Assembly: GCF_900637685.1 (NCBI RefSeq)
Contig: NZ_LR134388.1
Coordinates: 369,501 to 433,500 of the forward strand
Length of the DNA stretch: 64,000 nt
Reading direction: 5' to 3'
DNA from: Legionella sainthelensi
GTDB taxonomy: Bacteria > Pseudomonadota > Gammaproteobacteria > Legionellales > Legionellaceae
The translations under genes and the position numbers were made by a program. Of this stretch, positions 6,710 through 26,007 are shown piece by piece. Within the stretch, counting starts at the first letter, position 1; every line of letters begins with the position of its first letter. The notes under the pieces are model-generated. The model saw nothing but the letters and a program-made list of their open reading frames with translations. It ran no database searches and had not been told where the DNA came from.

Positions 6710-6963
6710 TTGAGTTTTTCATCCGGTTATAACACTATGCAATTGCATCATTTTTTTGAACGTTCCGTTGATCATTATTCGAGTAACATTGCTTTAATTT
6801 GTGATAATGCTTTTATTTCTTATCAAGAATTAGAATGTCGTGCAAATCAATTGGCTCATTTTTTGTATGAGAAAAAATAACCCAAGGGAATGTTGTTGGG
6901 CTCCTATTAGAGCGATCTGTAGACTGCTATATTGCCATCTTAGCTATTTTAAAAGTAGGGGCA

Positions 6964-9900
6964 GTGTATGTTCCTATCGAAGTGGATTATCCTGACGAAC
7001 GAATTAACTATATTCTCTCTGATTTGGCATTTGGTGCTGTTTTAACAACATCGCTGCAAGTAGCAAATAAAAATTTGGTTTGGCCGGTTTGTTATACGCT
7101 TGATACGCTTAGTGAGGAAATCTCGAAACAACCTACAACACGCTTAAATCTCCATGGTGAACGAAGTGCTGATGATTTGTGTTACATCATTTATACCTCA
7201 GGCTCTACTGGAAAACCAAAAGGGGTAGAAATTACCCAACGTAGTATTTGTCATTACGTCCAAGTTGCGAGTGAACTTTACAATATGGACAGCAACGACC
7301 GTGTGTATCAAGGTTTTTCTTTGGCTTTTGATGCCTCTTTAGAAGAATTTTGGATGGCTTTTGCCAATGGTGCTGCTCTGGTTGCATGCACTACAAAAGA
7401 AATCCGCGCTGGGTTGGGTTTGATTTCCTTTTTAGAACAACATAGGGTTAGTGTTTTTTCAACGGTACCTACTTTATTAGCTACATTAGAAGAACAACTA
7501 CCAAGTTTACGGCTGTTAATCTTAGGTGGGGAAACTTGTCCTGCAAGTTTGGTCAAACGCTGGAGTAGAGATGGGTTGCGGATCGTTAATACCTACGGAC
7601 CTACTGAAGCCACAGTGATTGCTACTTATGCTGAATGTCATCCTGAAAAGGAAATTACCATAGGCAGACCTTTACCTGGCTATGAAGTACTTATTTTGGA
7701 TGAGCAATTACAGGAAGTAGAGACTGGCGTGGAAGGCGAGTTATGCATTGCTGGAGTTGCTTTGGCTCGTGGTTATGTCAACCGACCTGAGAATACAGCA
7801 GAAAAATTTGTGTTGAATCCAAAAAATAAAGCACAACGCTTGTACCGAACAGGTGATCTGGTCTCAAAAACAGTTCAGGGTGAGTTACGTTTTGCTGGGC
7901 GCGTAGATGATCAAGTCAAGTTGCGTGGATTTCGTATTGAATTAAATGAAATTGAAGCAGTCATTATGAGCTATGCTGGAATTAAACAAGCAGTAGTCTC
8001 TTTGCAAATAATAGAACAGCCTACTTTAGTTGCTTATTTAATCCTTGATAAAAATTCGCGATTTGATGCCAATAAGCTCAAGGCTTTTTTAAGATCTTGT
8101 CTCCCTGATTACATGATTCCATCAATAATCGAAATTTTAGAAACCTTTCCGGTTTTGGCAAGTGGCAAAGTAAATAAAAAAGCGTTGCCAAAACCGGTAC
8201 AACTGAAAACCGAAAAATTAAAAAATACACCTAGTTCTCCACTTGCCAAAGAAATTGCACTGGTATGGGAAGATGCCTTAAACTGCTCGAATATTTCAAT
8301 CGATGATGATTTTTTCTATGATTTAGGTGGACATTCGCTTTATGCAGCTAAAGTCATCTCTAATTTGCGCAAAATATCTACTTTACAAAATATATCAATT
8401 TTGGATTTATACAAAAATCCTACAATTAGGCAGCTAGAACAGAAATTTAAGGATGAGGTAACGAATCATTCAAATTCCAATAAAAAACATAAAATTAATG
8501 AAAAGTACAAGGCTCCGGCGTGGAACTATTATTTGTGTGGATTGGGGCAAGTTTTTGGTTGTTTCTTGCAATATGGTTTAGGGACTTTGCAATTATTAGC
8601 AGTGATTCTGTGTTATAGTTGGGTTAGTTCTAAATATTCAATTATTTCAAAAGAGTCAGAACTTCTATTTTTCGCTTTATTTTTAGCGATGCCCTTTCTT
8701 TCTTTATTCATAACCATAGGCTTGAAATGGCTGTTATTAGGGCAAGTAAAACCAGGAAAATATCCCTTATGGGGTTGGTTTTATTTCCGTTGGTGGTTAG
8801 TACGACGATTGCAACATAATTTGTTTCTACCCAAATTTTTAGTGGGCTCCTCTTTAATTAATATCTATTATCGATTATTAGGCGCTAAAATAGGAAAAAA
8901 TTGTTATATAGGATCTATGTACGTGGGGACTCCTGATTTACTCAGCGTAGGAGAGAATACATCGATAGGTAGTGATAGTAAATTAAATGGTTATATAGTC
9001 GAAGATGGTTGGTTAAAAATAGGAACCATCGCTATAGGTGATCGTTGCTACGTGGGCCCGCGTTCGGTAATTGGAATCAATACAACAATTGAAAGTGATG
9101 CTGTTTTGGATGATATGTCGATGCTCCCTGATCGGGGAGTACTCCCGCAAAAGTCTTATTTTTCAGGATCACCAGCAGTATCTAGTGCGATTCCTGCCGA
9201 TCATATTACCCAACGCAAAGTGAAGGTTGCAGCGCCAACTCTGATGAATGATATCCTTTTTGGCCTTCTTCATTATTTAGGCATAGTCTTTGCTATCATG
9301 GTGTATTATTTGTGTCTTATCCCCTCAATTTCATTCATTAGCTATTATTATGATCAGGGGCATTATTTTACCACCATATTTTTTGCTATCCCTTTAGGAA
9401 GTATCTTATTTTTAAGCGCTTATTATCTTTGTACCCTAATGTGTAAGAAGATTATTTTGCATAAGGTAAAGCCAGGACATTATCCTTTAAAAAGTTTGTA
9501 TTATCTCCGCCATTGGACGTTTATGAAAATTTTCGATGTGAATGAAATACACGTTTTGGCAGACTCTTTGTATCTACCGGTCCTTTTGCGGTTGCTTGGA
9601 GCAAAATTGGGCAAAAATGTGGAAATGGGGGAAACTCCTCATCTTGTGCCAGATCTTCTTACCATTAAGGATGGGGGCTTTACCGCCAGTTCGGTAGCTT
9701 TAGCTTGGCCTAATGTCTACAACGGTTTTATTTCTTTTGCTCCAGTTTCTATTGGACAGGAAGCGTTTGTGGGGAATGTCAGCTTGTTGCCTGCTGGTCA
9801 ATCAATTGGTAATGGTGCATTGTTAGGGTGTCTTTCTGTGCTTCCTCCTGGTGAGCAAGCAAAAGAACCTCATTCTTCCTGGTTGGGCTCTCCTGCTGTT

Positions 9901-10140
9901 TTTTTGCCTCGGCGGGAAATAGTGGTTGGATTTTCAGAGGAAGAGAGATTTAATCCTCCCCTCAAGCTTTATTGTCTGCGCTTGTTTATTGAGTTTATCA
10001 GAATTATTTTACCAACAGCATTTTCACTGATTATTTTATTCAATTTATTGTATGTTATAGATTACATGCTTATTGCTCACTCCTGGTTGGTTACGGCACT
10101 GGTATTACCTCCAGCCGAGTTATTTTTATTGCCAGTCTGA
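6964..10140 (+). CDS. Main open frame of the Pls-type NRPS (A domain, carrier domain, membrane/LbH units 1-2)
   Basis: This is the largest piece of the broken gene; its first ATG lies inside the adenylation domain. A-domain core motifs run in order: A3 YTSGSTGKPKG, A4 LAFDASLEEF (Asp present, pointing to an alpha-amino acid), A5 NTYGPTEAT, A7 YRTGDL, A8 RVDDQVKLRGFRIELNEIE and A10 with the Lys in SGKVNKKALP. The carrier domain has DLGGHSLYAAK, with Ser for phosphopantetheine. After it come membrane pairs near 8530-8740 and 9240-9450, each followed by a KPGKYPL/KPGHYPL segment and LbH repeats (about 8870-9200 and 9590-9900). In Pls the C-terminal tandem domains catalyse iterative peptide bonds. 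The amino-acid substrate cannot be read by eye. Confidence 0.85.
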   Translation: MYVPIEVDYPDERINYILSDLAFGAVLTTSLQVANKNLVWPVCYTLDTLSEEISKQPTTRLNLHGERSADDLCYIIYTSGSTGKPKGVEITQRSICHYVQVASELYNMDSNDRVYQGFSLAFDASLEEFWMAFANGAALVACTTKEIRAGLGLISFLEQHRVSVFSTVPTLLATLEEQLPSLRLLILGGETCPASLVKRWSRDGLRIVNTYGPTEATVIATYAECHPEKEITIGRPLPGYEVLILDEQLQEVETGVEGELCIAGVALARGYVNRPENTAEKFVLNPKNKAQRLYRTGDLVSKTVQGELRFAGRVDDQVKLRGFRIELNEIEAVIMSYAGIKQAVVSLQIIEQPTLVAYLILDKNSRFDANKLKAFLRSCLPDYMIPSIIEILETFPVLASGKVNKKALPKPVQLKTEKLKNTPSSPLAKEIALVWEDALNCSNISIDDDFFYDLGGHSLYAAKVISNLRKISTLQNISILDLYKNPTIRQLEQKFKDEVTNHSNSNKKHKINEKYKAPAWNYYLCGLGQVFGCFLQYGLGTLQLLAVILCYSWVSSKYSIISKESELLFFALFLAMPFLSLFITIGLKWLLLGQVKPGKYPLWGWFYFRWWLVRRLQHNLFLPKFLVGSSLINIYYRLLGAKIGKNCYIGSMYVGTPDLLSVGENTSIGSDSKLNGYIVEDGWLKIGTIAIGDRCYVGPRSVIGINTTIESDAVLDDMSMLPDRGVLPQKSYFSGSPAVSSAIPADHITQRKVKVAAPTLMNDILFGLLHYLGIVFAIMVYYLCLIPSISFISYYYDQGHYFTTIFFAIPLGSILFLSAYYLCTLMCKKIILHKVKPGHYPLKSLYYLRHWTFMKIFDVNEIHVLADSLYLPVLLRLLGAKLGKNVEMGETPHLVPDLLTIKDGGFTASSVALAWPNVYNGFISFAPVSIGQEAFVGNVSLLPAGQSIGNGALLGCLSVLPPGEQAKEPHSSWLGSPAVFLPRREIVVGFSEEERFNPPLKLYCLRLFIEFIRIILPTAFSLIILFNLLYVIDYMLIAHSWLVTALVLPPAELFLLPV

Positions 10141-10157
10141 TTAGTCTCTTAATTGGT

Positions 10158-10712
10158 TTGAAGTGGATGATGTTGGGTAAATTAAAGCCCCTGACTAAGC
10201 CTTTGTGGGATCCTTTTATTTGGAAAAATGATGTAATCGAATATTCGTATAGCTATTTTATTAACCCACACTTTACTGAAAAAGTGTTAGGGACTCCTTT
10301 TGCGCTTTGTGTTGAACGTTGCTTTGGAACTAAAGCAGGCAAACGAGTTTATGTGGGTACGGAAGGATTTGCAGAATTTGATTTAATTACTATTGGTGAT
10401 GATGTATGCATTAATGACGGAGCAAGAATACAAACTCATCTTTATGAAGATCGCGTATTTAAAGTCTCTCATTTAACAATTAACTCTGGATGTAACGTAG
10501 GAGCCGACTCCATCATTCTTTATAATACACTAATGGAGGAGAATTCTACATTAGGAAGTCTTTCTTTATTGATGAAAGGTGAGCGTTTACCTCAAAATAC
10601 CCATTGGGCTGGCATTCCTGCACAATCTACTGTATCACGCTTCTCAAATCAGCAATCTAGGGTGCCGCCTGTAGTAAAAGAAAGAGAAGAAACAATTCCA
10701 GAATTAGCATAG
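10158..10712 (+). CDS. C-terminal fragment of the Pls-type NRPS (third LbH domain)
   Basis: This 184-residue frame is the third membrane/LbH unit of the upstream synthetase, one base out of frame with it. Upstream of its first ATG the same frame reads VIFIASLISLLIGLK, a membrane helix that continues the pattern of units 1 and 2. The KPLTKPLW segment and hexapeptide repeats (KRVYVGTEGFAEFDLITIGDDVCIN) match those units. No convincing ribosome site precedes 10158, so separate translation is unlikely. Confidence 0.7.
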   Translation: MKWMMLGKLKPLTKPLWDPFIWKNDVIEYSYSYFINPHFTEKVLGTPFALCVERCFGTKAGKRVYVGTEGFAEFDLITIGDDVCINDGARIQTHLYEDRVFKVSHLTINSGCNVGADSIILYNTLMEENSTLGSLSLLMKGERLPQNTHWAGIPAQSTVSRFSNQQSRVPPVVKEREETIPELA

Positions 10713-11018: not shown

Positions 11019-11083
11019 ATGGACTTTATTAAATTACTAAAAAAAAATTCCTTTATTTATTCAATCGCTTCCATTTTGAAGTT

Positions 11084-13828
11084 TTGTTGATTTTATTTAT
11101 TTATTCAAGTGCCAGTCTCGCTGAGTTCTCTTCACACTATAACTTGGCCTTCTATTATGGATCTCATCCGCCTTTGGCCAAATTAAGGCTTTTTAAAAAT
11201 GTGGTTATTGAACCTGGTAGTGGTTTAGATCCTCAGTTGCTAGAAATGGGGGGGCGAAACGTTTATGCCTATGCTTCACTCGGAGAAGCGATAAGTTTGA
11301 ATCAGTATGAAAAGCCTATTGATAAAAGTTGGGTCATTGCGAAAAACAAAAATTGGCAGTCTTTGGTTTTAGATCAGTCAAATCCAGCTTGGCAGGCATT
11401 TTTTATTAATCAAATAATTACTCCTCTTTGGGAAAAGGGGTATCGAGGATTTTTTCTAGATACGCTGGATTCTTATCGAATAGCATCAGAAGACCCTCAA
11501 AAAATGAAAAAGCAACAAGAAGGGATTATCACTACTATTCGAGCAATTAAATCCAAATATCCCAATGCGAGGCTTATAGTAAATCGTGGCTTTGAAGTGT
11601 TACCCGAAATTAAATCTTTAGTAGATCAAGTTGTCGCTGAATCTTTATTTAATGGCTGGGATAACCTAACAAAAAAATATTTTCAGGTTCCTGAAAAGAA
11701 CAGAGAAAACCTGTTAAAAGAGCTTGATGCAGTTAAGAAAATGGGAGTTCCTGTTACTGTTGTTGATTACTTACCCCCTAATGAAGAAGATCAAGCAAAA
11801 GCAGCTGCTAAGAGAATCGCTGATTTAGGATTTAATCCTTGGATTACGGATGGCGCTCTTAATCAGATTTATTTATTTGATTTCGAGCCATTACCCCGCA
11901 AGATATTATTATTTTATCAAGGAACAACAAATAATGTGGATGGGAAGATAGGCTCTTATCTTTCGTTTGCGGTAAGTATGCCTCTGAATTACATGGGATA
12001 TGTGACTGAATTACGTAATATTGCAGATCCTTTACCCCACAATCTTTCTGCAAAAGATTATGCAGGCATCGTGGTAGCACCAGGAGGGAATTTACTTGGA
12101 AGACAGATGGAATTGACTAATTGGTACAAGGATTTGTTAAAGAAAAAAATACCTGTGGTCATTTTAAACAGCTTCGGTTTTCCTCCAAAAGATCAACATG
12201 TAAAAATGTTTGGTTTATCTGTAATGGAAACTTACAACCCTATGCCGGCAAATGAGGTAAAAATTATATATAAAGCCCCTATAATGGGTTATGAAATTGC
12301 TCCTGTAGTTACTGGAGATGATTTCTTATCATTGCGTGTTTTAAACGGAAAGAGTCTACTCAAGGCAGAAGACGATATGGGTAACGTTTTTGATGTCGCT
12401 GCGATTACTCCGTGGGGTGGATATTATTTAACTAATAACATGTTACTCCAAAATATTGGGGATTATTTTCTGTGGACTATTGATCCGTTCAAGTTTTTTA
12501 GACAAGCATTGAAACTTCCCGAACGGCCAACCCCGGATCTTACCTCAGAAAATGGTAATCGATTAATGATGGTGCATATTGATGGTGATGGTTTTGCTAA
12601 CCGAGGTGAATGGTATAATGCCCCTTATACGGGAGAAATATTGAGTAAAGAGTTTTTAAAACGATATATTATTCCTACAACGGTATCCATTATCCAAGGA
12701 GAAATTGCACCCAATGGACTTCATCCTCAATTATCAGCACAGTTAGAAAAAATTGCGCGAAAAATTTTTGCTCTTCCGAATGTTGAAATAGCAAGTCATA
12801 CCTACAGCCATCCATTTACTTGGTCCAAAGCTGAGAAATATAAAGGAACAAAGCCTAATCCTTATACAATAAAAATTCCTAATTATAAATTTAATGTATA
12901 TACAGAAATCGTGGGCTCGGTCGAATACATCAATAAAAATTTGTCGCCACCAGGAAAAAAATGTAAAGTTTTCCTATGGTCGGGAGAGGGAGACATACCT
13001 GAAAAAGCATTAGAATATACTTATCAGTTAGGTTTAGCTAATTTAAACCCGGGAAAATTAATTACAAAATCAAAAAAATCTCTCACACGAGTGTCTGCTT
13101 TAGGCCTTTTTGAGGGATCGTATTTTCAAGTATTTGCACCTATAGGTAATGACAATGAAACAATTTCCCTGAATACCAGATTTTATTCTTTAATTAATAT
13201 TATTCCTGCGCTAAAACTTACCGATCACCCGCGCCGTTTAAAACCGATTGATATTTATTTCCATTTTTATACGCTCCAAAGACCATCCGGCATAAAAGCG
13301 TTACATGAAATTTATAAGTGGGCTCTGTCCACTCCAGTAATGAATATTTATGTTTCTGATTATTTTAACAAAATTCAAGATTTTCAAAGTCTAATGATTG
13401 CAAAAACTGAAGACGGTTGGTCTTTTATTACTGGTGATTCGTTAAGAGAAATACGAATTCCAGAGTCAATGGGGTATCCTGATCTGATAGGCAGTAGTAA
13501 TGTTATAGGATACAGCTCTTACAATGACGATCGTTACATTCATTTAGGACCTGGTGGACAATCATTTATCCGTTTTTCTTCTCAACCACCTACACTCCCT
13601 TATTTAGTTGATTCTACAGCTAGAGTTACTCGCTTTTTGAGAAAGAAAAATCAAATTGATTTCACCTTAGAGGGATATTTGCCACCAAAATTTACTTTTG
13701 CAAATGTGAGCAATTGCGCATTATGGGATGGAAAAAAAATCGTATCTCCTAAATCCCAAAAAGAGGATCAAAAACGTTATGAATTTACCGAAGGTTTGAG
13801 ATATGAACTCTCCGTTAGATGCCAATAA
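11084..13828 (+). CDS. pelA: PelA: Pel polysaccharide deacetylase and glycoside hydrolase
   Basis: PelA is the periplasmic enzyme that partly deacetylates Pel and can cleave it. The N-terminal GH114/GH166-like hydrolase domain has FLDTLD with Asp at 126 and an acidic Glu in VAESLF at 186. The central Rossmann-like region contains VVAPGGNLLG. The deacetylase has HIDGDG (D500, D502) and HTYSH (H572, H576). The 70-residue spacing from D502 to H572 equals that of P. aeruginosa D530 to H600, as I recall those numbers. The 914-residue frame starts at a TTG with no good ribosome site. An ATG at 11019 followed by an A9 run lies one frame off; adding one A gives a 936-residue protein starting MDFIKLLKKKFLYLF, close to the roughly 948 of P. 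aeruginosa. The true start is therefore uncertain. Confidence 0.9.
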   Translation: MLILFIYSSASLAEFSSHYNLAFYYGSHPPLAKLRLFKNVVIEPGSGLDPQLLEMGGRNVYAYASLGEAISLNQYEKPIDKSWVIAKNKNWQSLVLDQSNPAWQAFFINQIITPLWEKGYRGFFLDTLDSYRIASEDPQKMKKQQEGIITTIRAIKSKYPNARLIVNRGFEVLPEIKSLVDQVVAESLFNGWDNLTKKYFQVPEKNRENLLKELDAVKKMGVPVTVVDYLPPNEEDQAKAAAKRIADLGFNPWITDGALNQIYLFDFEPLPRKILLFYQGTTNNVDGKIGSYLSFAVSMPLNYMGYVTELRNIADPLPHNLSAKDYAGIVVAPGGNLLGRQMELTNWYKDLLKKKIPVVILNSFGFPPKDQHVKMFGLSVMETYNPMPANEVKIIYKAPIMGYEIAPVVTGDDFLSLRVLNGKSLLKAEDDMGNVFDVAAITPWGGYYLTNNMLLQNIGDYFLWTIDPFKFFRQALKLPERPTPDLTSENGNRLMMVHIDGDGFANRGEWYNAPYTGEILSKEFLKRYIIPTTVSIIQGEIAPNGLHPQLSAQLEKIARKIFALPNVEIASHTYSHPFTWSKAEKYKGTKPNPYTIKIPNYKFNVYTEIVGSVEYINKNLSPPGKKCKVFLWSGEGDIPEKALEYTYQLGLANLNPGKLITKSKKSLTRVSALGLFEGSYFQVFAPIGNDNETISLNTRFYSLINIIPALKLTDHPRRLKPIDIYFHFYTLQRPSGIKALHEIYKWALSTPVMNIYVSDYFNKIQDFQSLMIAKTEDGWSFITGDSLREIRIPESMGYPDLIGSSNVIGYSSYNDDRYIHLGPGGQSFIRFSSQPPTLPYLVDSTARVTRFLRKKNQIDFTLEGYLPPKFTFANVSNCALWDGKKIVSPKSQKEDQKRYEFTEGLRYELSVRCQ

Positions 13829-14684
13829 ACGAAAAAAGCCTTTTAGTTGGTGGCAAATGCTGCTTTTTATCTTATTGTTTATTGGTTTTTTGATTTTTCT
13901 TTTTCCGCAAAAATTGTTTATGGACACACTGCTCAAAACAGATAAGCCCAGTGCCGTATCTATAAGTTATTTGAAAAATGCAGTAGAAAATAATCCGACG
14001 AATGTTGATTTAAGGATGAGTCTTGCTCAACAACAATTCCAAATAGGGCAGGTTGAAGAGGCTAAAAAAACAATTACCCCATATATTAACTATAGGCCTA
14101 ACACCAATTTTGAATGGCGCGCTCTTTGGTTATATTATGAAATTCTCACTGTTGAAGCATTTCAGTTAAAAGAAAACAATCCACAGCGTAAAGAAAAAGA
14201 GATGATGTTACGGTCTCTACAAAATATTCTAATCCATTCACCGCTTTTGACTTCGAAAGAATTGCTAGAGCTTGCTGACAACGCCCTTGCTTTTGAGCGA
14301 CCAGATTTAGCCGATCTCATATATCAAAAAATCAATCTACAAGGTGAAAATCAATCAGTGGCTTTCTATGCTAAGGCAGGAAAAGTTGCTTTGTATGTTA
14401 AAAACTATCAGGGAAGTGCGGATTACTTTCTTATGGCGATGAAAAAAAGCACATCAATAGATGAAAAGAGACTCTATTACACCAAAGCATTGGATAGTTT
14501 AAGAGCAGGAGGAACCGAAAGTAAAGCTTTGGAATTCGCCCAAAAAAACATTGATGGATTAGGAAAAGACAAAAATACCTTAATCTACTTAGCTAAATTA
14601 GCTCTTGGGGCTGGACAACAAAAAGTTGCAGAGCAATATATTAATCAGCTATTACAACTCAATTTTCGAGGTTCAACAGAATGA
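13803..14684 (+). CDS. PelB N-terminal part: membrane-anchored TPR protein (split PelB)
   Basis: A 293-residue protein with one membrane helix at about residues 15-38 (WWQMLLFILLFIGFLIFLFP) and TPR-like helical repeats after it. In P. aeruginosa one PelB of about 1193 residues combines an N-terminal membrane anchor, many TPRs and a C-terminal outer-membrane barrel. Here the anchor plus first TPRs form one gene and the rest another, overlapping by ATGA at 14681. A GAAGG ribosome site precedes the ATG, which overlaps the pelA end by 26 bases. The position between pelA and the barrel gene supports the split-PelB reading. A diverged extra TPR protein that only resembles PelB or PelE is the alternative. 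Confidence 0.7.
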   Translation: MNSPLDANKRKKPFSWWQMLLFILLFIGFLIFLFPQKLFMDTLLKTDKPSAVSISYLKNAVENNPTNVDLRMSLAQQQFQIGQVEEAKKTITPYINYRPNTNFEWRALWLYYEILTVEAFQLKENNPQRKEKEMMLRSLQNILIHSPLLTSKELLELADNALAFERPDLADLIYQKINLQGENQSVAFYAKAGKVALYVKNYQGSADYFLMAMKKSTSIDEKRLYYTKALDSLRAGGTESKALEFAQKNIDGLGKDKNTLIYLAKLALGAGQQKVAEQYINQLLQLNFRGSTE

Positions 14685-17653: not shown

Positions 17654-17734
17654 TGCATTTTGCTTCACGAAATTCATTGAGGCTGTATTATTTTGGTTGT
17701 ATGTTAAAAGTGACTTATTAGAGAAGGAGTCAGA

Positions 17735-18262: not shown

Positions 18263-19602
18263 TGAATATAAAACCATTATTAAAGCAATTGTGGATTTGG
18301 CGAGAGCACAGTGTATGGATGTGGGGGGAGGCCATTGGTATCTCTCTCCTCATTTTAGGGTTGTGTTATGTAACGAATCCAAATAATCCATTGTTTATTA
18401 GAGAAATTTTTCCTTGGCCGTGGATTGCTTCAGTAATAATTGCATTTCAATATGGCTTTGGTCCGAGCTTGTTATCAATTGCGGTAATTGCTATATATGC
18501 CAATACCAAACTTATAGCAGGGGATATGTCACTCACTGACTTCCAGTCTTATTTGCTCAGTGGAGTATTCTTAACGCTAATCTGCACTTTATTTAGCTCG
18601 AGCTGGGTAAGAAGAATACAAAATACAGATGTACTGCAGGCTTATAGTGAAGAACGTTTAAAGAGTTTGTCTCGCTCTTATTATATGTTGCGACTTTCTT
18701 CTGATTACCTTGAACAAAACATTATTTCTAAACCTATGACACTACGATTAGCGTTTAGAGAATTACAAAAGTTAAATTTAAATGCAGACACACTGTTGTC
18801 TCCCGACGTAGCCTATTCTTTTTTGCAAATTATTTCGCAATTTTGCCAAGTCAATGTAGGTGGAATCTTTTTGTATCAAAATGAATGGTTAAATCCGGAA
18901 CCTTTTGTTGAAATTGGTTTAGTGGGCGAATTAGTGACACATGATCCACTCATCAAGAGATGCATGGAGTCAGGAGAAATTTCTTTTGTAAGTATTAATC
19001 AAATCGAAGAAGCAAGCGACTGTCTTTATTTGGTGGCAGTGCCTTTACTCACTAGAGAAAATGGACTTATAGGTATATTAGTGATTAAAGAAATTCCTTT
19101 TTGGAATTTAAACGAAGAGACGCTCAGAATATTGAGTATCTTGGCTCATTATTTCAGTCAAGAAGTTATTGTTTCTTCTGAAGTTACTGATTTTTTACGC
19201 AACTATCCTGATTGTTCCGTTGATTTTGCAAAACAATTAATAAGACTAATCCCATTGAAAGAAACTTTAGAAATTGATAGTGCACTTGTTGCAGTGATGG
19301 TTTCGAAAAAATTAAGAGCTCATAATGTCATCTATAATTTAAAAAACCAGCACCGAATTCTTGACTCATTTTGGTCTTTAGAATTGGGTGAATATGATGT
19401 ATTAATTACTTTAATGCCTTTTACTTCTTCAGCAGGAATTTATGGCTATATAGCAAGAATTAAAAATTATTTGCATATGGACTTAGGCTTCTCCGTGAAT
19501 AATGAAGAGATAAGAATACGTTCGATGCAGCTTTATGCAGACACTCCTTTTTATGTGATGCAGTATTTCTTAAATTTTATCAATGGAGAGGACATTGGTT
19601 AA
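18262..19602 (+). CDS. pelD: PelD: c-di-GMP receptor of the Pel synthase complex
   Basis: PelD is the inner-membrane c-di-GMP sensor that switches Pel synthesis on. I start at ATG 18262 (TGATG overlap with pelC), giving 446 residues against about 455 in P. aeruginosa. Four membrane helices occupy roughly residues 20-112, then comes a helical linker, a GAF domain (about 160-310) and a degenerate GGDEF domain. The GGDEF signature is missing, as in known PelD proteins, but the inhibitory-site motif RxxD is kept as RILD at about 365-368, almost the same number as P. aeruginosa R367/D370. This predicts c-di-GMP binding without cyclase activity. Confidence 0.92.
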   Translation: MNIKPLLKQLWIWREHSVWMWGEAIGISLLILGLCYVTNPNNPLFIREIFPWPWIASVIIAFQYGFGPSLLSIAVIAIYANTKLIAGDMSLTDFQSYLLSGVFLTLICTLFSSSWVRRIQNTDVLQAYSEERLKSLSRSYYMLRLSSDYLEQNIISKPMTLRLAFRELQKLNLNADTLLSPDVAYSFLQIISQFCQVNVGGIFLYQNEWLNPEPFVEIGLVGELVTHDPLIKRCMESGEISFVSINQIEEASDCLYLVAVPLLTRENGLIGILVIKEIPFWNLNEETLRILSILAHYFSQEVIVSSEVTDFLRNYPDCSVDFAKQLIRLIPLKETLEIDSALVAVMVSKKLRAHNVIYNLKNQHRILDSFWSLELGEYDVLITLMPFTSSAGIYGYIARIKNYLHMDLGFSVNNEEIRIRSMQLYADTPFYVMQYFLNFINGEDIG

Positions 19603-20572
19603 TCAGATGGATTCATTACATGGATTGTTCGCCGCTCTTTTTCGACAAAGTCCAACTACCGATTTGTTCTTGAATGTATTTTTTCTGAATTTAGGCATAA
19701 GTCTATTAATTACTTTTTTATTGATAAACTTAATCCAGTTAGATCTTGTTAAAAGGAAAAAAGAATTTTCATTGTTATTAATATGTATTGGAACTTTTAT
19801 TCCATTTCTGGGAAATATTGTAGTTGTTGTTGCTGTTTTCCTTCTTAAAAAGTTTGGTGAAGATTTTCAACCCCACATAATTAATTTATATCCTCAAGTT
19901 GAATATGCGCGAAAAAATCCTGTTGAAGTAGTAGCGCATGGAACAAGTTGGGCTGATGTCAGATTGCATTCTTCGAATTATTCGACCGAAGAGCGCAATA
20001 AAGCACTTTATAGCGTTAGTAAAGGATTGCCGAGAGATACGAACCGCATTTATAGCTCTTTAGTATCGGATGATTTAGAGGAATTGCGGATTTGCGCTTT
20101 TTCCATGCTTGAGAATCAACAGAATTATTTGCAAAAGAAAATTAATCAATTTATAAAAAAATCTGAAGAAACGGCAGATCCTGATAAAATAGCCTTTCTA
20201 GCCAAGCAGCTCGCTTTATTATATTGGGAATTGGTGTATCGTAACTTAGCTGATCAGGAATTTCGCTCCATCTTATTGGAACAAAGTAATTTTTACGCCA
20301 ATATTGCATTAGAATCACTACCAGAAGATACAACTTTGTTAATCTTATTAGCAAGGATAAATATGGAAAATAAGCAATTAAAAGAAGGGCTTAGTTATTT
20401 ATCGAGGGCCTCAGAATTAAATGCCCCAAAAAGTAAAATTTATCCATATTTAGCAGAGCTCGCATACAACAAAAGGGATTATAATACAGTGAAAGAATCT
20501 TTATGTTTGGATACTTCGTTTCGTTATATTTTAAAAATTAATAAAGTGGTTGAATTCTGGTGTGGAAAATGA
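19583..20572 (+). CDS. pelE: PelE: TPR membrane protein of the Pel synthase complex
   Basis: A 329-residue frame, the same length as P. aeruginosa PelE as I recall it. It has two membrane segments near the N-terminus (about 20-48 and 58-82) and then helical TPR-like repeats (ALESLPEDTTLLILLARINMEN, GLSYLSRASELNAP). PelE is an inner-membrane part of the PelDEFG synthase and helps place PelF at the membrane. The ATG at 19583 overlaps the pelD end, but the clear GGAGAGG lies just after it. A TTG at 19595 (VNQMDSL...) is therefore a good alternative start. The end overlaps pelF by ATGA. Confidence 0.88.
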   Translation: MERTLVNQMDSLHGLFAALFRQSPTTDLFLNVFFLNLGISLLITFLLINLIQLDLVKRKKEFSLLLICIGTFIPFLGNIVVVVAVFLLKKFGEDFQPHIINLYPQVEYARKNPVEVVAHGTSWADVRLHSSNYSTEERNKALYSVSKGLPRDTNRIYSSLVSDDLEELRICAFSMLENQQNYLQKKINQFIKKSEETADPDKIAFLAKQLALLYWELVYRNLADQEFRSILLEQSNFYANIALESLPEDTTLLILLARINMENKQLKEGLSYLSRASELNAPKSKIYPYLAELAYNKRDYNTVKESLCLDTSFRYILKINKVVEFWCGK

Positions 20573-22083
20573 GTACTTATTTAGCAGAACAGGCTGATGA
20601 AGTTGATATCGCCCTACTCCTTGAGAGTTCCTATCCATTTATTTTGGGAGGAGTTTCCACCTGGGTACATCAGATTATAGAAAATTTTCCTCAATACACA
20701 TTTGCCCTAATATTTTTAGGTGGCTCTCCTGAGAATTATCAAGAGGGGATTCGCTATAATATTCCCAAGAATGTCACTCATTTTCAAGTCCATTATCTTT
20801 TTGACGAAGATGAGCCGCCTTCGCCCAAAAAAAGGTTAGTTGGAAATGAAAAGGGATTTGTATATCTGAGAGAAATGCATGAGCTGTTTAAATGCCCAAC
20901 CGCTGAAAATTTAGATCAAATTGCTGATGTCAGTAATATTCTTAATGATCCTTCAGGAGTTGATTATGCGCAGTTTTTGTATAGCAAGCTCAGTTGGAAT
21001 TTTATTGAAGACAAATACGCAGAACAGTGCGAAGATTCTTCATTTATTGATTATTTTTGGACAGTAAAAAATATCCATAAACCTTTATGGAAGTTGATCC
21101 ATGTTCTTACCAATTTTCCTAAAGTTAGAGCAGTGCATTCTATTTCAACGGGATATGCGGGATTACTTGGTTTTTTTATTCATCGACATTTCAACTATCC
21201 TCTAATTTTAACCGAACATGGTATTTATACTAAAGAACGTAAAATTGATATTTTTTTAAGCCAGGTATTTCATGATGATCCTGATCGGGCGTTGACCGAA
21301 ACAAGTTATTTACGAAATTTATGGGATCGCTATTTTAAGACATTGGCACAGCTAACTTATCACGTAGCTGATCCAATAGTCAGTTTATTTAGTCATGCAC
21401 AGCAAATACAGATAGATGATGGTGCTGATCCAAAGAAGACACTCATTATACCTAATGGGATTAATATCGATCGATTTAGGAAATTAAGACGCCCTTTGGA
21501 GGAAAAACTTACAGCGATCTGTTTTGTTGGCCGTATTGTTCCTATGAAAGATGTGAAGGGGTTTATCAGAGCAGTGCCTAATCTACATAATGCAATGCCG
21601 GATTTAAAGGTTTGGATCATTGGTTCAACTGACCAGGATCCGGTGTATGCTCAAGAATGTATTGAGCTAGTCGAAAATACATTGCTGCAAGATGTTATTG
21701 AATTTTTCCCTCATCAAAAAATGGAAGATGTTCTACCAAAAATCAAGATTTTAGTCTTACCAGCTATTAGAGAAAGTATGCCATATGTGCTTTTGGAAAG
21801 TTTTGCTGCTGGGGTTCCTGTAGTGGCTACTGACGTTGGGGCTTGTAAAGAAATGGTATTAGGTATGAATGAAGAAGACATTGCTTTAGGCCCCGCTGGT
21901 AAGATAGTGAGAGTCTCTGATTCTAAAGACTTGGAAGTTGCGATTCTTGACGTATTAAATAACCCTGAATTATGGAATGAAATGAGTCAGTCTGCGATTA
22001 AACGCGTAGAAACCTACTATAATGAAACAGTTATGATTGCACAATATCAAGAAATCTACGAAAGTACGATGAATAAAGGATAG
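20569..22083 (+). CDS. pelF: PelF: Pel glycosyltransferase (GT4)
   Basis: PelF is the cytoplasmic glycosyltransferase that polymerises Pel from UDP-amino sugars. I chose ATG 20569 (ATGA overlap with pelE), giving 504 residues against about 507 in P. aeruginosa. The PelF-like start ALLLESSYPFILGGVSTWVHQ is clear. Other GT-B features are IIPNGINIDRF, the donor-site stretch CFVGRIVPMKDVKGFIRA, and the E-x7-E motif in RESMPYVLLESFAAG, followed by VPVVATDVG. It is followed after 7 bases by pelG. Confidence 0.95.
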   Translation: MSTYLAEQADEVDIALLLESSYPFILGGVSTWVHQIIENFPQYTFALIFLGGSPENYQEGIRYNIPKNVTHFQVHYLFDEDEPPSPKKRLVGNEKGFVYLREMHELFKCPTAENLDQIADVSNILNDPSGVDYAQFLYSKLSWNFIEDKYAEQCEDSSFIDYFWTVKNIHKPLWKLIHVLTNFPKVRAVHSISTGYAGLLGFFIHRHFNYPLILTEHGIYTKERKIDIFLSQVFHDDPDRALTETSYLRNLWDRYFKTLAQLTYHVADPIVSLFSHAQQIQIDDGADPKKTLIIPNGINIDRFRKLRRPLEEKLTAICFVGRIVPMKDVKGFIRAVPNLHNAMPDLKVWIIGSTDQDPVYAQECIELVENTLLQDVIEFFPHQKMEDVLPKIKILVLPAIRESMPYVLLESFAAGVPVVATDVGACKEMVLGMNEEDIALGPAGKIVRVSDSKDLEVAILDVLNNPELWNEMSQSAIKRVETYYNETVMIAQYQEIYESTMNKG

Positions 22084-22090
22084 CAACCAA

Positions 22091-22789
22091 ATGGCGGGAA
22101 TTGGATTCTCTTTACGAAAAATTTTAAATCACGAAAGTATTACACGGACAATAGCTGCTTATACGGTTGCAGGAGTTATTGGCGGTGGACCATGGCTGAT
22201 CTCAATTCTAGGTATTATTTCTCTGTCAATTATTATTGCTAGGATACCCGCGCAACAAGAAGCAATTACGCAATTTCAAATATCGATTACTTACTTAATT
22301 GCCGGGAGTTTAATCTTTAGTAGTTCTGCAGGTAATAGTTTTTCTCGTTATGCGGCGGATCAATTATTTTTAAATAGATCCACCTACCTTATTTCTAACT
22401 TGAATGGATTAATACTTATTATTTCTTTAGGTGCTGGTATTTTTTCATTCTTTTTTGTATTACTTTTTTTCTCGCAACAAGATATTGCCTATCGCTTGCT
22501 ATTAATGGGTAGTTTTGTTGTTCTATCAAATATTTGGGCTGTGATTACACTTCTCACCGCAGTAAAAGATTATACGATTATCCTCAAAGCGTTTTTATTG
22601 AGTTACTCGATTATCGTTCTTTTGGCGTATGGGTTACGTAATTACGGTCTTGATGCTTTTATGTTCAGCTTTTTAGTGGGACAAACCGTTTTATTGCTTA
22701 ATTTACTCATCGTGCTGTACAAAGAGTATCCCACCAATTCAATTATTGATTTTCATTTTCTGAAAAAAATAGTATGTATAAGATATTAA
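22091..22789 (+). CDS. pelG: PelG, N-terminal half (frameshifted gene)
   Basis: PelG is a 12-helix membrane protein of the MOP flippase type thought to move Pel across the inner membrane. This frame covers about the first 226 residues (MAGIGFSLRKILNHES, then hydrophobic helices). It runs into a wrong-frame tail (IVCIRY) after a run of seven A at 22763-22769. One extra A would continue as LKKNSMYKILIFNGLFFNL, joining the next frame without loss. The repaired length is 457 residues against about 456 in P. aeruginosa. Without slippage or correction the product is a half-protein lacking the last helices. Confidence 0.88.
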   Translation: MAGIGFSLRKILNHESITRTIAAYTVAGVIGGGPWLISILGIISLSIIIARIPAQQEAITQFQISITYLIAGSLIFSSSAGNSFSRYAADQLFLNRSTYLISNLNGLILIISLGAGIFSFFFVLLFFSQQDIAYRLLLMGSFVVLSNIWAVITLLTAVKDYTIILKAFLLSYSIIVLLAYGLRNYGLDAFMFSFLVGQTVLLLNLLIVLYKEYPTNSIIDFHFLKKIVCIRY

Positions 22790-23463
22790 TTTTTAACGGT
22801 TTATTTTTCAACTTAGGCGTATGGGTAGATAAATTTATATTTTGGTATAATGATAATACGAGTTATGCAGTGATTGGTCCTTTTAGAGCTTCATTAATTT
22901 ACGATCTCCCAATCTTTATTGCCTATCTTTGTTTGTTGCCAGGAATGGCCGTTTTTCTTTTACTAATAGAGACCAATTTCTCGGATTATTATCTTCGTTT
23001 TAATGAAGCAATACGAAGTGGGAAATCCTTGTCTTATATAAAGATTGCGGGTAATCAAGTAGCTACTTATGCTTTTGAACTCATCTATTCTATAGTTAAA
23101 ATTCAAGCATTAGTAATTATTCTTATGCTGCAGTTTGGCGAAAAAATTTTGGCTTTTTTAAATATTTCGCTGCTTTACTACAATTTGCTTTATGTTGCAG
23201 TGATAGGTACAAGTTTGCAAATTTTTCTTCTAGCTATTATTGATATTTTGTACTATATGGATAGAAGATGGTATGTTTTTGTAGTTTCCATTAGCTATTT
23301 TGTTTTAAATTTAGTATTTAGCTTAATCTCTGTATCTTTGGGACCTTTTTATTACGGATATGGATTTACTGGTTCCTTAGCTTGTGTCTGTGTATTAGGA
23401 ATGTATTTTTTAAATGAAGGATTCAATGATCTTGAATATAAAGTGATCATGCTACGAGGATAA
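22774..23463 (+). CDS. pelG: PelG, C-terminal half (frameshifted gene)
   Basis: This is the second half of PelG in the -1 frame relative to the first, overlapping it by 16 bases. It begins MYKILIFNGLFFNLGVWVDKF, an internal PelG motif rather than a natural start, and holds the remaining membrane helices to the end. No strong ribosome site precedes 22774, so independent start is doubtful. Translation coupled to the upstream stop, or slippage on the A7 run, could still make some product. It ends one base before the epimerase gene. Confidence 0.85.
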   Translation: MYKILIFNGLFFNLGVWVDKFIFWYNDNTSYAVIGPFRASLIYDLPIFIAYLCLLPGMAVFLLLIETNFSDYYLRFNEAIRSGKSLSYIKIAGNQVATYAFELIYSIVKIQALVIILMLQFGEKILAFLNISLLYYNLLYVAVIGTSLQIFLLAIIDILYYMDRRWYVFVVSISYFVLNLVFSLISVSLGPFYYGYGFTGSLACVCVLGMYFLNEGFNDLEYKVIMLRG

Positions 23464-23464
23464 T

Positions 23465-24403
23465 ATGGATACTTATCTTGTTACAGGAGGTGCAGGGTTT
23501 ATTGGTTCACATCTGTGTGACCAATTAGTGAAATCTTCCAAGGTATATGTCCTCGATAATCTTTCAACAGGCTGCAAAGAGAATCTTCCCGAGGAGGTTG
23601 TTTTTATTGAAGGGGATATCTGTGACTACCAATTAGTCAAAGAACTAATGGAGCAGGTAGATGGATGCTTTCATCTTGCCGCCTTGGTTTCAGTCCCTTT
23701 ATGCAATGAAGACATTTTGCAAGCTCATGAAATAAATTTATCTGCTACGGTGAATATTTTAAAAACCGCGAGTGAATTGTCTCGATTTTCTAAATTTGTT
23801 CCTATTGTATTTGCTTCTTCTTGTGCGGTATATGGTAATAGTTCGCATTTCCCAATTAAAGAAGATGCTCCTTTGTTGCCTATATCTATTTATGCAAATA
23901 CGAAACTTTCAGGTGAATATTATGGTCGATTTATCAGTGAAATATATAAATTTCCTTTCACTGCATTACGTTTATTTAATGTCTATGGAGCAAGACAAAA
24001 ATTAGATAGCCCTTATTCTGGTGTCATTTCAATCTTTTTAAATAATTTATTGAATGATAATCCCTGTGCCTTTTATGGTTCGGGTGAGCAATCAAGAGAT
24101 TTTGTATATGTAGAGGATGTTATTTTATTTTTTATTAAAGCGATGGAAACTTCTAAGCATGCTGCCCGAACTTATAATGTATGCAGTGGAAAAAATATTA
24201 AAATAAAGACAATAGCTAATTTGTTAAGTCACGAATTGAAAAAAGAACTAGTCACTATTCATAAACCTCCAAAAATTGGGGATGTTGAATACTCATTGGG
24301 AGATCCATTTTTAGCGGGAGAAGAGCTTGGTATTTTTGCTAAAACGTCAGTTGAATCTGGATTGAAGAACCTAGTAAATACAATACTGAGAGATCTTAAA
24401 TGA
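23465..24403 (+). CDS. pelX: NAD-dependent sugar-nucleotide epimerase, PelX-like
   Basis: An extended short-chain dehydrogenase of 312 residues. It has the Rossmann motif GGAGFIG at 8-14, the Ser-containing SSCAVYG segment, and the catalytic YANTK pair (Y143, K147). It resembles UDP-glucose/UDP-GlcNAc 4-epimerases. PelX of Pseudomonas protegens (about 310 residues) is a UDP-GlcNAc C4-epimerase encoded with pel genes that makes UDP-GalNAc for Pel. Size, family and the 1-base gap to pelG support the same role here; the exact substrate is inferred. It overlaps the next gene by ATGA. Confidence 0.8.
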   Translation: MDTYLVTGGAGFIGSHLCDQLVKSSKVYVLDNLSTGCKENLPEEVVFIEGDICDYQLVKELMEQVDGCFHLAALVSVPLCNEDILQAHEINLSATVNILKTASELSRFSKFVPIVFASSCAVYGNSSHFPIKEDAPLLPISIYANTKLSGEYYGRFISEIYKFPFTALRLFNVYGARQKLDSPYSGVISIFLNNLLNDNPCAFYGSGEQSRDFVYVEDVILFFIKAMETSKHAARTYNVCSGKNIKIKTIANLLSHELKKELVTIHKPPKIGDVEYSLGDPFLAGEELGIFAKTSVESGLKNLVNTILRDLK

Positions 24404-26007
24404 AGATAACCTACCTAGGCCACGCAGGATTTTATGTTGAATCTGAATTGTCAGTCATCATCATGGATCCGTGGCTTTCACCTTATGGCGCATTTGATTC
24501 AGCATGGTTTCAATTTCCAAAAAATATCCATATGCTTGAATATGTTTTAAATCATTTTGAATCAACTCATAAAGATAAATACATTTATGTCAGCCATGAG
24601 CACAAAGATCATTTTGATATTGAATTTCTAAAAATGATAAAAAAGAGAAATTTTAAATTCATATTGGCTAATTTTCATCGTTGTATTGTTAAAGAGCAAT
24701 TGGAAGCGATTAATTATCAATGTGATGGCATTATTTCTTTAAATTATGAAGAAGAGTTTACACTAAAAGATGGGAATCTGAGGCTCTTTGTACTTGATGC
24801 AGAGCTTGATTGTGATTCCGCAATTCTTGTTCAAGCGGATTCAAAAAGTTTTTTAAATATAAATGATTGTAAGCTACATGAAAAATTAGAAAAAATTGTA
24901 AAAATGCATGGAAAAATAGATGTTTTTGCAGCTCAATTTTCTGGGGCTATATGGCATCCTGTTTGCTATGACATGCCTTTAAAAGATTATCAAAGAGTTT
25001 CTTTGAAAAAGAAAATGAATAAGTTTTCTATTGTTGCAAGAGCAATTGAAACCGTAAATCCAGCGTTTTATATTCCTTCTGCGGGTCCTCCTTGTTTTCT
25101 CGATCCAATGTTAATGCATATTAATGTTGAAAAAATTAATATTTTCCCCAAAGCTCCCGAATATCTTCGCTATTTGGACAAGCACTGTAAAGCAACAGAT
25201 ACCACATGGCCTGAAATCATGCCCGGTGATATTCTGGATGTAAATTTAGGGAAATTTATTCACCTTGATGAAAATAGGGTGGAGGAAAACCAGTATGAAA
25301 GTTATATCAAATCCTATGCCAATGAATATAAAGACTACTTTCAACAAAGGGAAATAGAGAATAAAAAAGTTAACCCTCAAGCAGTGTTTGTCGATTTAAG
25401 ACACGATCTTGAGGAAAAAATGAAGAATATACATTTAGTCAATGTCAAGGTTCATGCCATTTTATATTGGGGGATTAGTGATTATTCGGATATCATGTAT
25501 CGCATCGATTTAACCAATAAAACGATTACCACAACAAATGAGATTCTAGATCCCAATAATTATTGGAAAATTGAAGCTCCTGCTTGGCAAGTCAATAAAG
25601 TTTTAAGTAACGAGATGAATTGGCCTGATTTTGTACTGACTTTTAGAGTGAAGCTGAAAAGAAATCCCGATCTCTATGATGTGGTCACACACGGATTTGT
25701 GGCTTTGGATGCGATTGAAATTAGACGGTTTTGTGACTTGGTTGAGCGCTTTCATGCAAATAATAAAGATCGAATTGTAGTAGAGTTTGAGGGGAAACGT
25801 TATTCGATATTACGTTGGTGCCCTCATTTGGGAGGAGATCTCAGTTCAGGTTGGTTGGATAGTCAAGGGTGTTGGGTATGTCCAAGACACCAATGGCATT
25901 TTGATCTGCGCAATAAAGGGCAGTGTATTACAAGTACAGAGACTATCGATGCGATTTGCCTGGACGATGAGAACCTTAACCAAAAAGAAGAGAAAAAAGA
26001 AAAGTGA
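24400..26007 (+). CDS. Metallo-beta-lactamase fold plus Rieske [2Fe-2S] protein, probable N-acetyl-sugar hydroxylase
   Basis: A 535-residue two-domain protein. The N-terminal part is a UlaG-like metallo-beta-lactamase fold: the start MKITYLGHAGFYVE, metal ligands H66, H68, D70 and H71 in SHEHKDH. The C-terminal part is a Rieske domain with C474-x-H476 and C494-x2-H497, separated by 17 residues, which can bind a [2Fe-2S] cluster. This pair occurs in CMP-Neu5Ac hydroxylase (CMAH) and mycobacterial UDP-MurNAc hydroxylase (NamH), both of which turn an N-acetyl into an N-glycolyl group. Co-translation with the epimerase (ATGA overlap) suggests a UDP-N-acetylhexosamine substrate. Family and motifs are seen; the substrate is inference. 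Confidence 0.8.
   Translation: MKITYLGHAGFYVESELSVIIMDPWLSPYGAFDSAWFQFPKNIHMLEYVLNHFESTHKDKYIYVSHEHKDHFDIEFLKMIKKRNFKFILANFHRCIVKEQLEAINYQCDGIISLNYEEEFTLKDGNLRLFVLDAELDCDSAILVQADSKSFLNINDCKLHEKLEKIVKMHGKIDVFAAQFSGAIWHPVCYDMPLKDYQRVSLKKKMNKFSIVARAIETVNPAFYIPSAGPPCFLDPMLMHINVEKINIFPKAPEYLRYLDKHCKATDTTWPEIMPGDILDVNLGKFIHLDENRVEENQYESYIKSYANEYKDYFQQREIENKKVNPQAVFVDLRHDLEEKMKNIHLVNVKVHAILYWGISDYSDIMYRIDLTNKTITTTNEILDPNNYWKIEAPAWQVNKVLSNEMNWPDFVLTFRVKLKRNPDLYDVVTHGFVALDAIEIRRFCDLVERFHANNKDRIVVEFEGKRYSILRWCPHLGGDLSSGWLDSQGCWVCPRHQWHFDLRNKGQCITSTETIDAICLDDENLNQKEEKKEK

What the first reader, a model, noticed from the sequence alone, without database searches (positions are those of the whole stretch)
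6710..26007. Candidate modified-Pel system: Pls-type NRPS, split pelABCDEFG, PelX-like epimerase and an MBL/Rieske hydroxylase in one cluster
Pel genes in order are followed, with a 1-base gap and an ATGA overlap, by an epimerase that could make UDP-GalNAc and by an MBL plus Rieske protein. CMAH and NamH share this domain pair and hydroxylate N-acetyl groups to N-glycolyl. The tight coupling suggests a polymer with N-glycolyl amino sugars, or a hydroxylated precursor pool. The Pls-type NRPS upstream would make a cationic homopeptide, a chemically similar matrix polymer. I know of no described Pel locus with an MBL/Rieske gene.
Basis: partly seen in the sequence, partly recalled or inferred. 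Interest (0 to 1): 0.9.

Follow-up and report, generated by a model that had tools for sequence, protein, structure and literature searches.

The report
Candidate sugar hydroxylase in Pel operon
A Legionella biofilm-sugar (Pel) operon ends in a gene for an iron enzyme related to one that turns N-acetyl into N-glycolyl groups on cell-wall sugars, and in related bacteria this gene recurs beside sugar-precursor genes of several polymer clusters, so some bacterial matrix polymers may carry an unexpected chemical group.

Summary
In detail: pelA-G in order, a PelX-type epimerase one base after pelG, and a 535-aa MBL/Rieske protein joined by an ATGA overlap. Two qualifications: pelG and the NRPS are interrupted in this genome (single open frames in L. 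santicrucis), and the NRPS is a genus-wide gene (34 of 45 genomes) not tied to pel (4 of 45). In 143 Legionellaceae genomes it is linked to pel in 6 of 15 pel loci, in four gene orders, and the pel-linked copies are not one clade. All 13 full-length copies are next to a nucleotide-sugar epimerase-type gene (PelX-like, WecB-type or another SDR), in Pel, BcsB-type or YaiO/PgaC-like clusters. The protein shares domain order and metal/Rieske residues with NamH-like proteins but forms a separate, widely spread family (25-27% identity to two named NamH-like proteins). Best reading: an O2-dependent hydroxylase of the N-acetyl group of UDP-GlcNAc-derived sugars, feeding N-glycolyl amino sugars to secreted polymers. 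Genetics support an amino-sugar precursor role; the N-glycolyl product is inferred by homology and unproven.

The parts
11084..13828 (+). pelA: hydrolase (GH114) + deacetylase
   Evidence: Pfam GH114; phmmer to PelA 9cgy over 860 residues, E 2e-141, HIDGDGF and SHxxSHPF stretches aligned
13803..14684 (+). TPR protein, N-terminal half of a two-gene pelB (inferred)
   Evidence: TPR_19; separate homologue in 9 of the other 14 Legionellaceae pel loci
14681..17653 (+). pelB: TPR + outer-membrane barrel
   Evidence: PF24604 E 6e-52
17735..18262 (+). pelC
   Evidence: PDB PelC 9h80 E 1e-32, 5t10 E 3e-29
18259..19602 (+). pelD
   Evidence: PF16963 E 3e-26; PDB PelD 4dmz E 1e-15
19583..20572 (+). pelE, assigned by position and orthology
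   Evidence: no Pfam family; weak TPR match; syntenic homologues between pelD and pelF
20560..22083 (+). pelF glycosyltransferase
   Evidence: NF038011 571 bits, cutoff 100
22091..22789 (+). pelG, N-terminal half (interrupted gene)
   Evidence: PF16933 positions 1-227; one 457-aa frame in L. santicrucis
22774..23463 (+). pelG, C-terminal half
   Evidence: PF16933 positions 230-451
23465..24403 (+). PelX-type UDP-HexNAc 4-epimerase
   Evidence: Epimerase family; best PDB match 6wjb E 2e-51, catalytic Ser and Tyr present
24400..26007 (+). MBL/Rieske protein, proposed N-acetyl hydroxylase of UDP-amino sugars
   Evidence: Rieske E 2e-8 and Lactamase_B_3 E 3e-5; profile to diiron monooxygenase 8a90 E 1e-11; residues; linkage
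26060..26084 (.). terminator-like hairpin between the operon and convergent panC
   Evidence: pattern match only
6964..10140 (+). NRPS-like (Pls-type) gene, interrupted; not part of the pel unit
   Evidence: AMP-binding, PP-binding, Hexapep; single 1324-aa frame in L. santicrucis; 34 of 45 genus genomes
10158..10712 (+). C-terminal piece of the same NRPS-like gene

Best explanation
The MBL/Rieske gene encodes a cytoplasmic, O2-dependent, iron-containing hydroxylase of the NamH/CMAH kind. Its MBL domain holds the catalytic iron and its C-terminal Rieske cluster passes electrons to it. It converts the N-acetyl group of a UDP-GlcNAc-derived sugar (here UDP-GalNAc made by the adjacent PelX-type epimerase, or UDP-GlcNAc before epimerisation) to N-glycolyl. 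PelF then polymerises a mix of GalNAc and N-glycolyl-galactosamine, and PelA deacylates part of it. In relatives the same enzyme clade serves other synthase-dependent polymers. Shown: gene linkage, domain order, residue conservation, phylogeny. Inferred: location, hydroxylation, substrate, product, presence in the polymer. In this genome pelG is interrupted, so the pathway may be inactive in this strain.
For: Linkage: the gene lies 2.3-10.6 kb from pelF in 6 of 6 Legionellaceae genomes that have both, among 143 searched (15 with pelF, 13 with a full-length copy; expected overlap 1.4, hypergeometric P 5e-4). Four gene orders. All 13 full-length copies adjoin a same-strand nucleotide-sugar epimerase-type gene: PelX-like in 5, another SDR in 6, WecB-type in 2. 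WecB of G006 is over its curated cutoff (414 bits, cutoff 210). Homology: UlaG then Rieske as in NamH; H8, D23, H66, H68, D70, H71, D156 identical in 63 of 63 sequences and Rieske C474/H476/C494/H497 in 62 of 63. MBL profile matches diiron monooxygenase 8a90 (E 1e-11) and CmlA (E 0.015-0.018); the Rieske part matches Rieske oxygenases. Repeated association: pel-linked copies rejected as one clade (AU p 1.6e-55), 4 changes on the gene tree and 4 on the PelF tree. Precedent: engineered E. coli fed N-glycolylglucosamine made N-glycolyl chondroitin, the authors inferring that a 4-epimerase (KfoA) and polymerase (KfoC) accept UDP-N-glycolyl sugars (PMC7429809 passages).
Against: No activity, metal or product data. 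Identity to the Rhodococcus and Nocardia NamH-like proteins is only 25-27%, in a separate clade, so the substrate cannot be transferred. 9 of 15 Legionellaceae pel loci lack the gene, including the close relatives G797 and G806, so Pel does not need it. 7 of 13 full-length copies are in genomes without pelF. Of 42 non-Legionellaceae neighbourhoods displayed, none showed pelA, B, C, D, E or G, and several (myxobacteria) showed no match to the reference sugar genes used there. The pel label is not clustered on the gene tree (225-228 of 500 shuffles as low). Co-occurrence by itself is modest and genomes are not independent. The N-glycolyl chondroitin precedent gave about 1% conversion.
Confidence: 0.62

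Rival explanations
1. The enzyme oxidises a UDP-amino sugar elsewhere (ring carbon, C6 or another N-acyl change) rather than making N-glycolyl.
For: Separate clade from NamH-like proteins, 25-27% identity to the named two; residue 186 is His in 32 of 36 family members but Tyr in 25 of 27 NamH-like ones, so the pockets may differ; some neighbouring clusters hold sugar dehydrogenases and further SDRs.
Against: Both characterised MBL/Rieske fusions that I know of hydroxylate N-acetyl groups: NamH (PMC10050696 passages) and CMAH (CMP-Neu5Ac to CMP-Neu5Gc, PMC7429809 passages); metal and Rieske residues are the same as in NamH-like proteins.
Confidence: 0.16
2. It makes a general UDP-N-glycolylglucosamine pool that also enters peptidoglycan or LPS; the pel linkage reflects shared precursors only.
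For: Gene kept where most pel genes are absent: G013 and L. saoudiensis have SDR-MBL/Rieske-(pelC in L. saoudiensis)-pelX-UGD; found with BcsB/WecB-type and YaiO/PgaC-like clusters.
Against: Every full-length Legionellaceae copy is beside a precursor gene, most in a polymer cluster; in the window the start overlaps the epimerase stop.
Confidence: 0.13
3. A repair or scavenging enzyme, or a decaying passenger gene without a role in the polymer.
For: pelG and the NRPS are interrupted in this genome; most pel genes are absent in two relatives.
Against: The frame is open in all 13 full-length Legionellaceae copies with catalytic residues kept; repeated association with pel.
Confidence: 0.09

Closest known systems
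NamH (mycobacterial N-acetylmuramic acid hydroxylase, UlaG + Rieske)
   Same: N-terminal UlaG/MBL and C-terminal Rieske (order from PMC10050696 passages), similar length, same metal and Rieske residues as NamH-like proteins
   Different: 25-27% identity to the Rhodococcus and Nocardia NamH-like proteins; separate clade; sits in polymer operons rather than near the amidase/HAD/acyltransferase genes of the Rhodococcus copy; mostly His instead of Tyr at position 186. No mycobacterial NamH itself was compared by name
CMAH (CMP-Neu5Ac hydroxylase)
   Same: Hydroxylates the N-acetyl group of a nucleotide sugar (PMC7429809 passages); Rieske plus MBL-type domains (recalled)
   Different: Animal enzyme; domain order recalled as Rieske first; not compared here
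8a90 and CmlA, MBL-fold diiron monooxygenases
   Same: MBL domain profile matches 8a90 at E 1e-11 and CmlA at E 0.015-0.018
   Different: Only the MBL part aligned in those hits; substrates unrelated (recalled)
Pel operon with PelX (Pseudomonas protegens)
   Same: pelABCDEFG order and a PelX-type epimerase; PelX makes UDP-GalNAc (PMC9135694 passages)
   Different: Added MBL/Rieske gene; pelB in two genes
epsilon-poly-L-lysine synthetase (Pls)
   Same: Adenylation, carrier and hexapeptide-type domains in the intact L. santicrucis relative; likeness to Pls recalled
   Different: Interrupted here; genus-wide, not part of pel; product unknown

Membership tests
NamH/CMAH-type MBL-Rieske hydroxylase superfamily | UlaG/MBL domain and Rieske domain in one protein, NamH order | tested here: met
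NamH/CMAH-type MBL-Rieske hydroxylase superfamily | HxHxDH metal motif and Rieske CxH...CxxH | tested here: met
   63 of 63 and 62 of 63 sequences; the exception is one long-branch actinobacterial row, L165
NamH/CMAH-type MBL-Rieske hydroxylase superfamily | Hydroxylates the N-acetyl group of a nucleotide sugar | not testable with these tools
   Needs enzymology
NamH proper | Falls in the actinobacterial NamH-like clade | tested here: not met
   Tree of 63 rows: window in a separate clade of Legionellaceae and others (quick method). The NamH-like clade is named from a Rhodococcus locus whose synteny with Rv3818 is recalled
Pel system | pelA, B, C, D, E, F, G present and in order | tested here: met
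   pelE by position; pelG interrupted here
Pel system | PelA hydrolase domain and deacetylase motifs | tested here: met
Pel system | PelD c-di-GMP inhibitory-site residues (RxxD, recalled) | tested here: inconclusive
   The P. aeruginosa stretch rlrndeg aligns to slelge; weak alignment, one sequence
PelX | Closest solved relative is PelX and catalytic Ser and Tyr kept | tested here: met
   Best PDB match 6wjb; 6wj9 differs from it by S to A and Y to F in the aligned stretches, and the window has S and Y. That 6wj9-6wjb are PelX is recalled
PelX | UDP-GlcNAc C4-epimerase activity | not testable with these tools
   Needs enzymology
Pls NRPS as part of this system | Travels with pel | tested here: not met
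   34 of 45 genus genomes have it, 4 of 45 have pelF
Pls NRPS | Transmembrane tandem domains and lysine specificity | not tested
   -

The most novel reading that the evidence does not exclude
An uncharacterised, widely spread MBL/Rieske family makes UDP-N-glycolyl-hexosamines as precursors for secreted matrix polymers. In Legionellaceae it is an exchangeable tailoring gene placed into Pel, BcsB/WecB-type and YaiO/PgaC-like synthase operons, each time beside the gene that sets the sugar. N-glycolyl groups would change deacetylation, charge and enzyme resistance of the matrix.
Probability: 0.42. Interest if true: 0.85.

Novelty: new variant of a known kind. Interest (0 to 1): 0.72.

Why it matters
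N-glycolyl amino sugars in bacteria are known from the muramic acid of mycobacterial peptidoglycan (passages). In searches I saw no report of a bacterial gene that makes them for a matrix polymer; the nearest is N-glycolyl chondroitin made by engineered E. coli fed the sugar (PMC7429809). A dedicated gene that recurs next to precursor genes of three polymer types gives a simple test: does the polymer carry N-glycolyl, and does it resist PelA-type hydrolases and deacetylases? It also marks out a protein family beside NamH with a predictable substrate class.

Tried and rejected
Rejected: NRPS as a pel partner. Rejected: gene specific to Pel. Rejected: pel linkage as a single clade of the enzyme, though repeated gain cannot be told from exchange and loss. 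Viral contigs: 34 stretches matched a pattern, none a relative. Plasmids: 9 records with a match, all under 60% identity. Paenibacillus rigui has both genes but on contigs of different length (215,151 and 233,953 bases), so not linked there; an Archangium pelF piece lies on a 12.6-kb contig on which my script found no hydroxylase gene. c-di-GMP riboswitch: no Rfam match in the window at gathering score except a tRNA. Rows dropped: one search kept 80 of 166 relatives; one search used 55 of the 80 (L054-L108), the other 25 (L109-L133) matched only an N-terminal stretch, at most to residue 226; in 7 of the 55 my ORF script called no gene there and no neighbourhood was shown. Searches also found two short MBL-only relatives (G028, G768) and one Rieske-only match (G027), not counted as copies. 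A class-level draw gave matches in 5 of 369 genomes, the window's own included, two of them partial. The A3 alignment was made only to scan hand-picked neighbours in bulk: 39 rows, one a hydroxylase homologue, 38 neighbours.
Full report
What is there. The window lies in a 4.16-Mb one-contig genome. Its genus is Legionella: five loci from the genome search handles are identical over at least 12 kb to named records (L. santicrucis G021, L. rowbothamii G020, L. gratiana G010, L. saoudiensis G022, and, in a sister genus by the tool's grouping, L. maceachernii G803). The nearest is L. santicrucis (94% for the protein studied). Positions 11084-26007 hold pelA, a TPR gene, pelB, C, D, E, F, G, an epimerase and an MBL/Rieske gene on one strand. 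The epimerase starts one base after pelG, and the MBL/Rieske gene starts inside the epimerase stop codon (ATGA). A terminator-like hairpin follows.

Qualifications. pelG is in two overlapping frames that match the two halves of one PelG model; it is one frame of 456-461 residues in the other 14 Legionellaceae pel loci. The NRPS is likewise interrupted here and one 1324-residue frame in L. santicrucis. Whether these are mutations or assembly errors was not settled. The two-gene pelB is a different matter: a separate TPR gene is seen in 9 of the other 14 loci, and pelB fission is described for other lineages (PMC7112194, passages only).

The NRPS is a neighbour, not a partner. It is present in 34 of 45 genus genomes, pelF over cutoff in 4 of 45. 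L. maceachernii has the same pel-epimerase-hydroxylase unit with a helicase gene upstream. L. gratiana has the NRPS without pelF, next to its own copy of the MBL/Rieske gene.

Linkage of the MBL/Rieske gene. In 143 Legionellaceae genomes there are 15 with pelF and 15 with a match to the MBL/Rieske profile, 13 full-length and 2 short MBL-only. Six genomes have both pelF and a full-length copy, and in all six they are 2.3 to 10.6 kb apart (expected co-occurrence 1.4, P 5e-4; with all 15 matches P 1.4e-3). Gene orders: (a) pelA-G, pelX, hydroxylase in the window, L. santicrucis, L. maceachernii; (b) SDR, hydroxylase, pelA-G, pelX, UGD in L. rowbothamii; (c) hydroxylase, pelX, pelA to pelF, with pelG on the other strand, in G744; (d) pelX, hydroxylase and pelC-G on one strand with pelB, UGD, SDR and pelA on the other in G805. 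G744 and G709 (locus L058) are the same sequence and are counted once. Nine pel loci lack the gene, among them G797 and G806, whose pel proteins are 51-70% identical to the window's (pelA seen only in part) and whose operons end in pelX.

Beyond pel. G013 and L. saoudiensis have SDR, hydroxylase, pelX and UGD, with only pelC of pelA-G in L. saoudiensis; neither has pelF. G006 and L. gratiana have it beside WecB-type genes in a locus with BcsB, TPR and GT2 genes (the L. gratiana WecB is typed by similarity, 48%). In G332, G764 and G728 it stands beside an SDR. G764 continues with a YaiO barrel, a HEAT protein, a PgaC-like GT2 and a PelX-like epimerase, and has a divergent UGD; G332 also has the UGD, YaiO and HEAT genes and a PelX-like gene further on. 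I did not type the distal genes of G728. All 13 full-length copies are next to a same-strand PelX-like, SDR or WecB-type gene, as far as ORFs of 80-90 residues or more were called. The common denominator I propose is UDP-GlcNAc and its products; the G006 WecB is over its curated cutoff, the UGDs fit the general nucleotide-sugar dehydrogenase model with TviB as the best specific but sub-cutoff model, and the SDR has no specific assignment.

Beyond the family. A scan of genome contigs kept 80 of 166 relatives. In 48 of 55 examined loci my script displayed a neighbourhood: 6 Legionellaceae and 42 others, none of the 42 with pelA, B, C, D, E or G (matches to pelF and pelX there were 20-31% identical and generic). 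Some have sugar genes next to it: SDRs, GTs and WecB in Actinomarina, UGD and SDRs in a Chloroflexi MAG, an epimerase two genes upstream in Paenibacillus rigui, GTs in two further Chloroflexi MAGs. Of 38 hand-picked neighbours scanned in bulk, 4 match Epimerase, 4 Sulfotransfer_3 and 4 Glyco_transf_4. Myxobacterial copies gave no clear context.

The protein. The A2 alignment (30 sequences) and a 63-sequence set with 27 NamH-like proteins keep the MBL metal residues (63 of 63) and Rieske ligands (62 of 63; the exception is the long-branch row L165). The MBL part matches a diiron monooxygenase, 8a90, at E 1e-11, ahead of hydrolases (next 1e-5). NamH has the same N-terminal UlaG, C-terminal Rieske order (PMC10050696, passages). 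On the tree the window belongs to a Legionellaceae clade (SH-aLRT 100) inside a broad family apart from the NamH-like clade (quick method, some long branches, one Dictyobacter row with the NamH-like ones). I named that clade from a Rhodococcus ruber locus with amidase, HAD and acyltransferase neighbours; its match to the Rv3818 surroundings is recalled. Residue 186 is Tyr in NamH-like rows (25 of 27) and His in 32 of 36 others; the Tyr exceptions are G332, G764, G728 and Dictyobacter. Pel-linked copies are not one clade (AU p 1.6e-55; the labels were fixed before any tree, but the test was run after the tree was seen). The label needs four changes on the gene tree (bootstrap 4-4, supported branches force 3) and four on the PelF tree (bootstrap 3-4, supported branches force 2). 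Clustering of the label is no better than in 225-228 (gene tree) and 130-143 (PelF tree) of 500 shuffles, which fits a gene that moves between clusters but is also what no association with the phylogeny would give.

Mechanism. Shown: linkage, adjacency, residues, phylogeny. Inferred: the Rieske cluster feeds electrons to an iron centre in the MBL fold, which activates O2 and hydroxylates the N-acetyl methyl of a UDP-HexNAc; PelX sets the galacto form; PelF polymerises; PelA removes part of the acyl groups. Downstream tolerance of N-glycolyl has a precedent: engineered E. coli K4 fed N-glycolylglucosamine made N-glycolyl chondroitin, which the authors explain by 4-epimerase and polymerase accepting UDP-N-glycolyl sugars, at about 1% conversion (PMC7429809, passages). 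Whether hydroxylation here comes before or after epimerisation is open. If it acts on UDP-GalNAc or UDP-ManNAc, peptidoglycan would be spared.

Literature. Searches listed no paper whose title or abstract start describes a Rieske gene in a pel locus or N-glycolyl in Pel. I read passages of PMC10050696, PMC9135694, PMC7112168, PMC7112194, PMC7429809, PMC9561416 and PMC6972965, and listings of the rest. The words Rieske and Legionella do not occur in the main text of PMC7112168 or PMC7112194, nor N-glycolyl in PMC9135694, which describes Pel as partly deacetylated GalNAc. The PelX paper itself was not held. Absence from an open-access library is weak evidence.

Verdict. A real, repeated association between an uncharacterised MBL/Rieske family and amino-sugar polymer operons; the Pel case is one of several. 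New variant of a known kind. The chemistry is a good hypothesis and not a result.

Noticed in passing
window 22091-23463 and 6964-10712: pelG and the NRPS-like gene are interrupted here but single open frames in L. santicrucis; mutation or assembly error not resolved.
   Followed up: partly
window 18259-19602: PelD stretch slelge stands where P. aeruginosa PelD has rlrndeg; the c-di-GMP inhibitory site may be degenerate.
   Followed up: no
L191 10696-18001, L192 945-1946, L193 5594-14204: A synthase-type cluster in G332 and G764: UGD divergent from MBL/Rieske, SDR, YaiO barrel, HEAT protein, a PelX-like epimerase, and in G764 a PgaC-like GT2; a polymer cluster I do not recognise.
   Followed up: partly
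L050 and L051: BcsB/TPR/GT2 locus with WecB-type genes around the MBL/Rieske gene in G006 and L. gratiana; in G006 WecB copies lie on both sides of it.
   Followed up: partly
L048 and L049: Most pel genes are absent between the hydroxylase and pelX in G013 and L. saoudiensis, with flanking precursor genes kept.
   Followed up: partly
window 24955-24957 (residue 186): His in 32 of 36 family members, Tyr in 25 of 27 NamH-like ones; the three Legionellaceae with Tyr are G332, G764 and G728, at least two of them the YaiO-type clusters. A candidate specificity position.
   Followed up: partly
window 6964-10712: The Pls-like NRPS is in 34 of 45 genus genomes; its product is unknown.
   Followed up: partly
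L187 4683-6869: Paenibacillus rigui pel locus has a 728-aa protein with a PelX-like part, resembling the epimerase-PelD fusions described for Gram-positive Pel (PMC7112168 passages).
   Followed up: no
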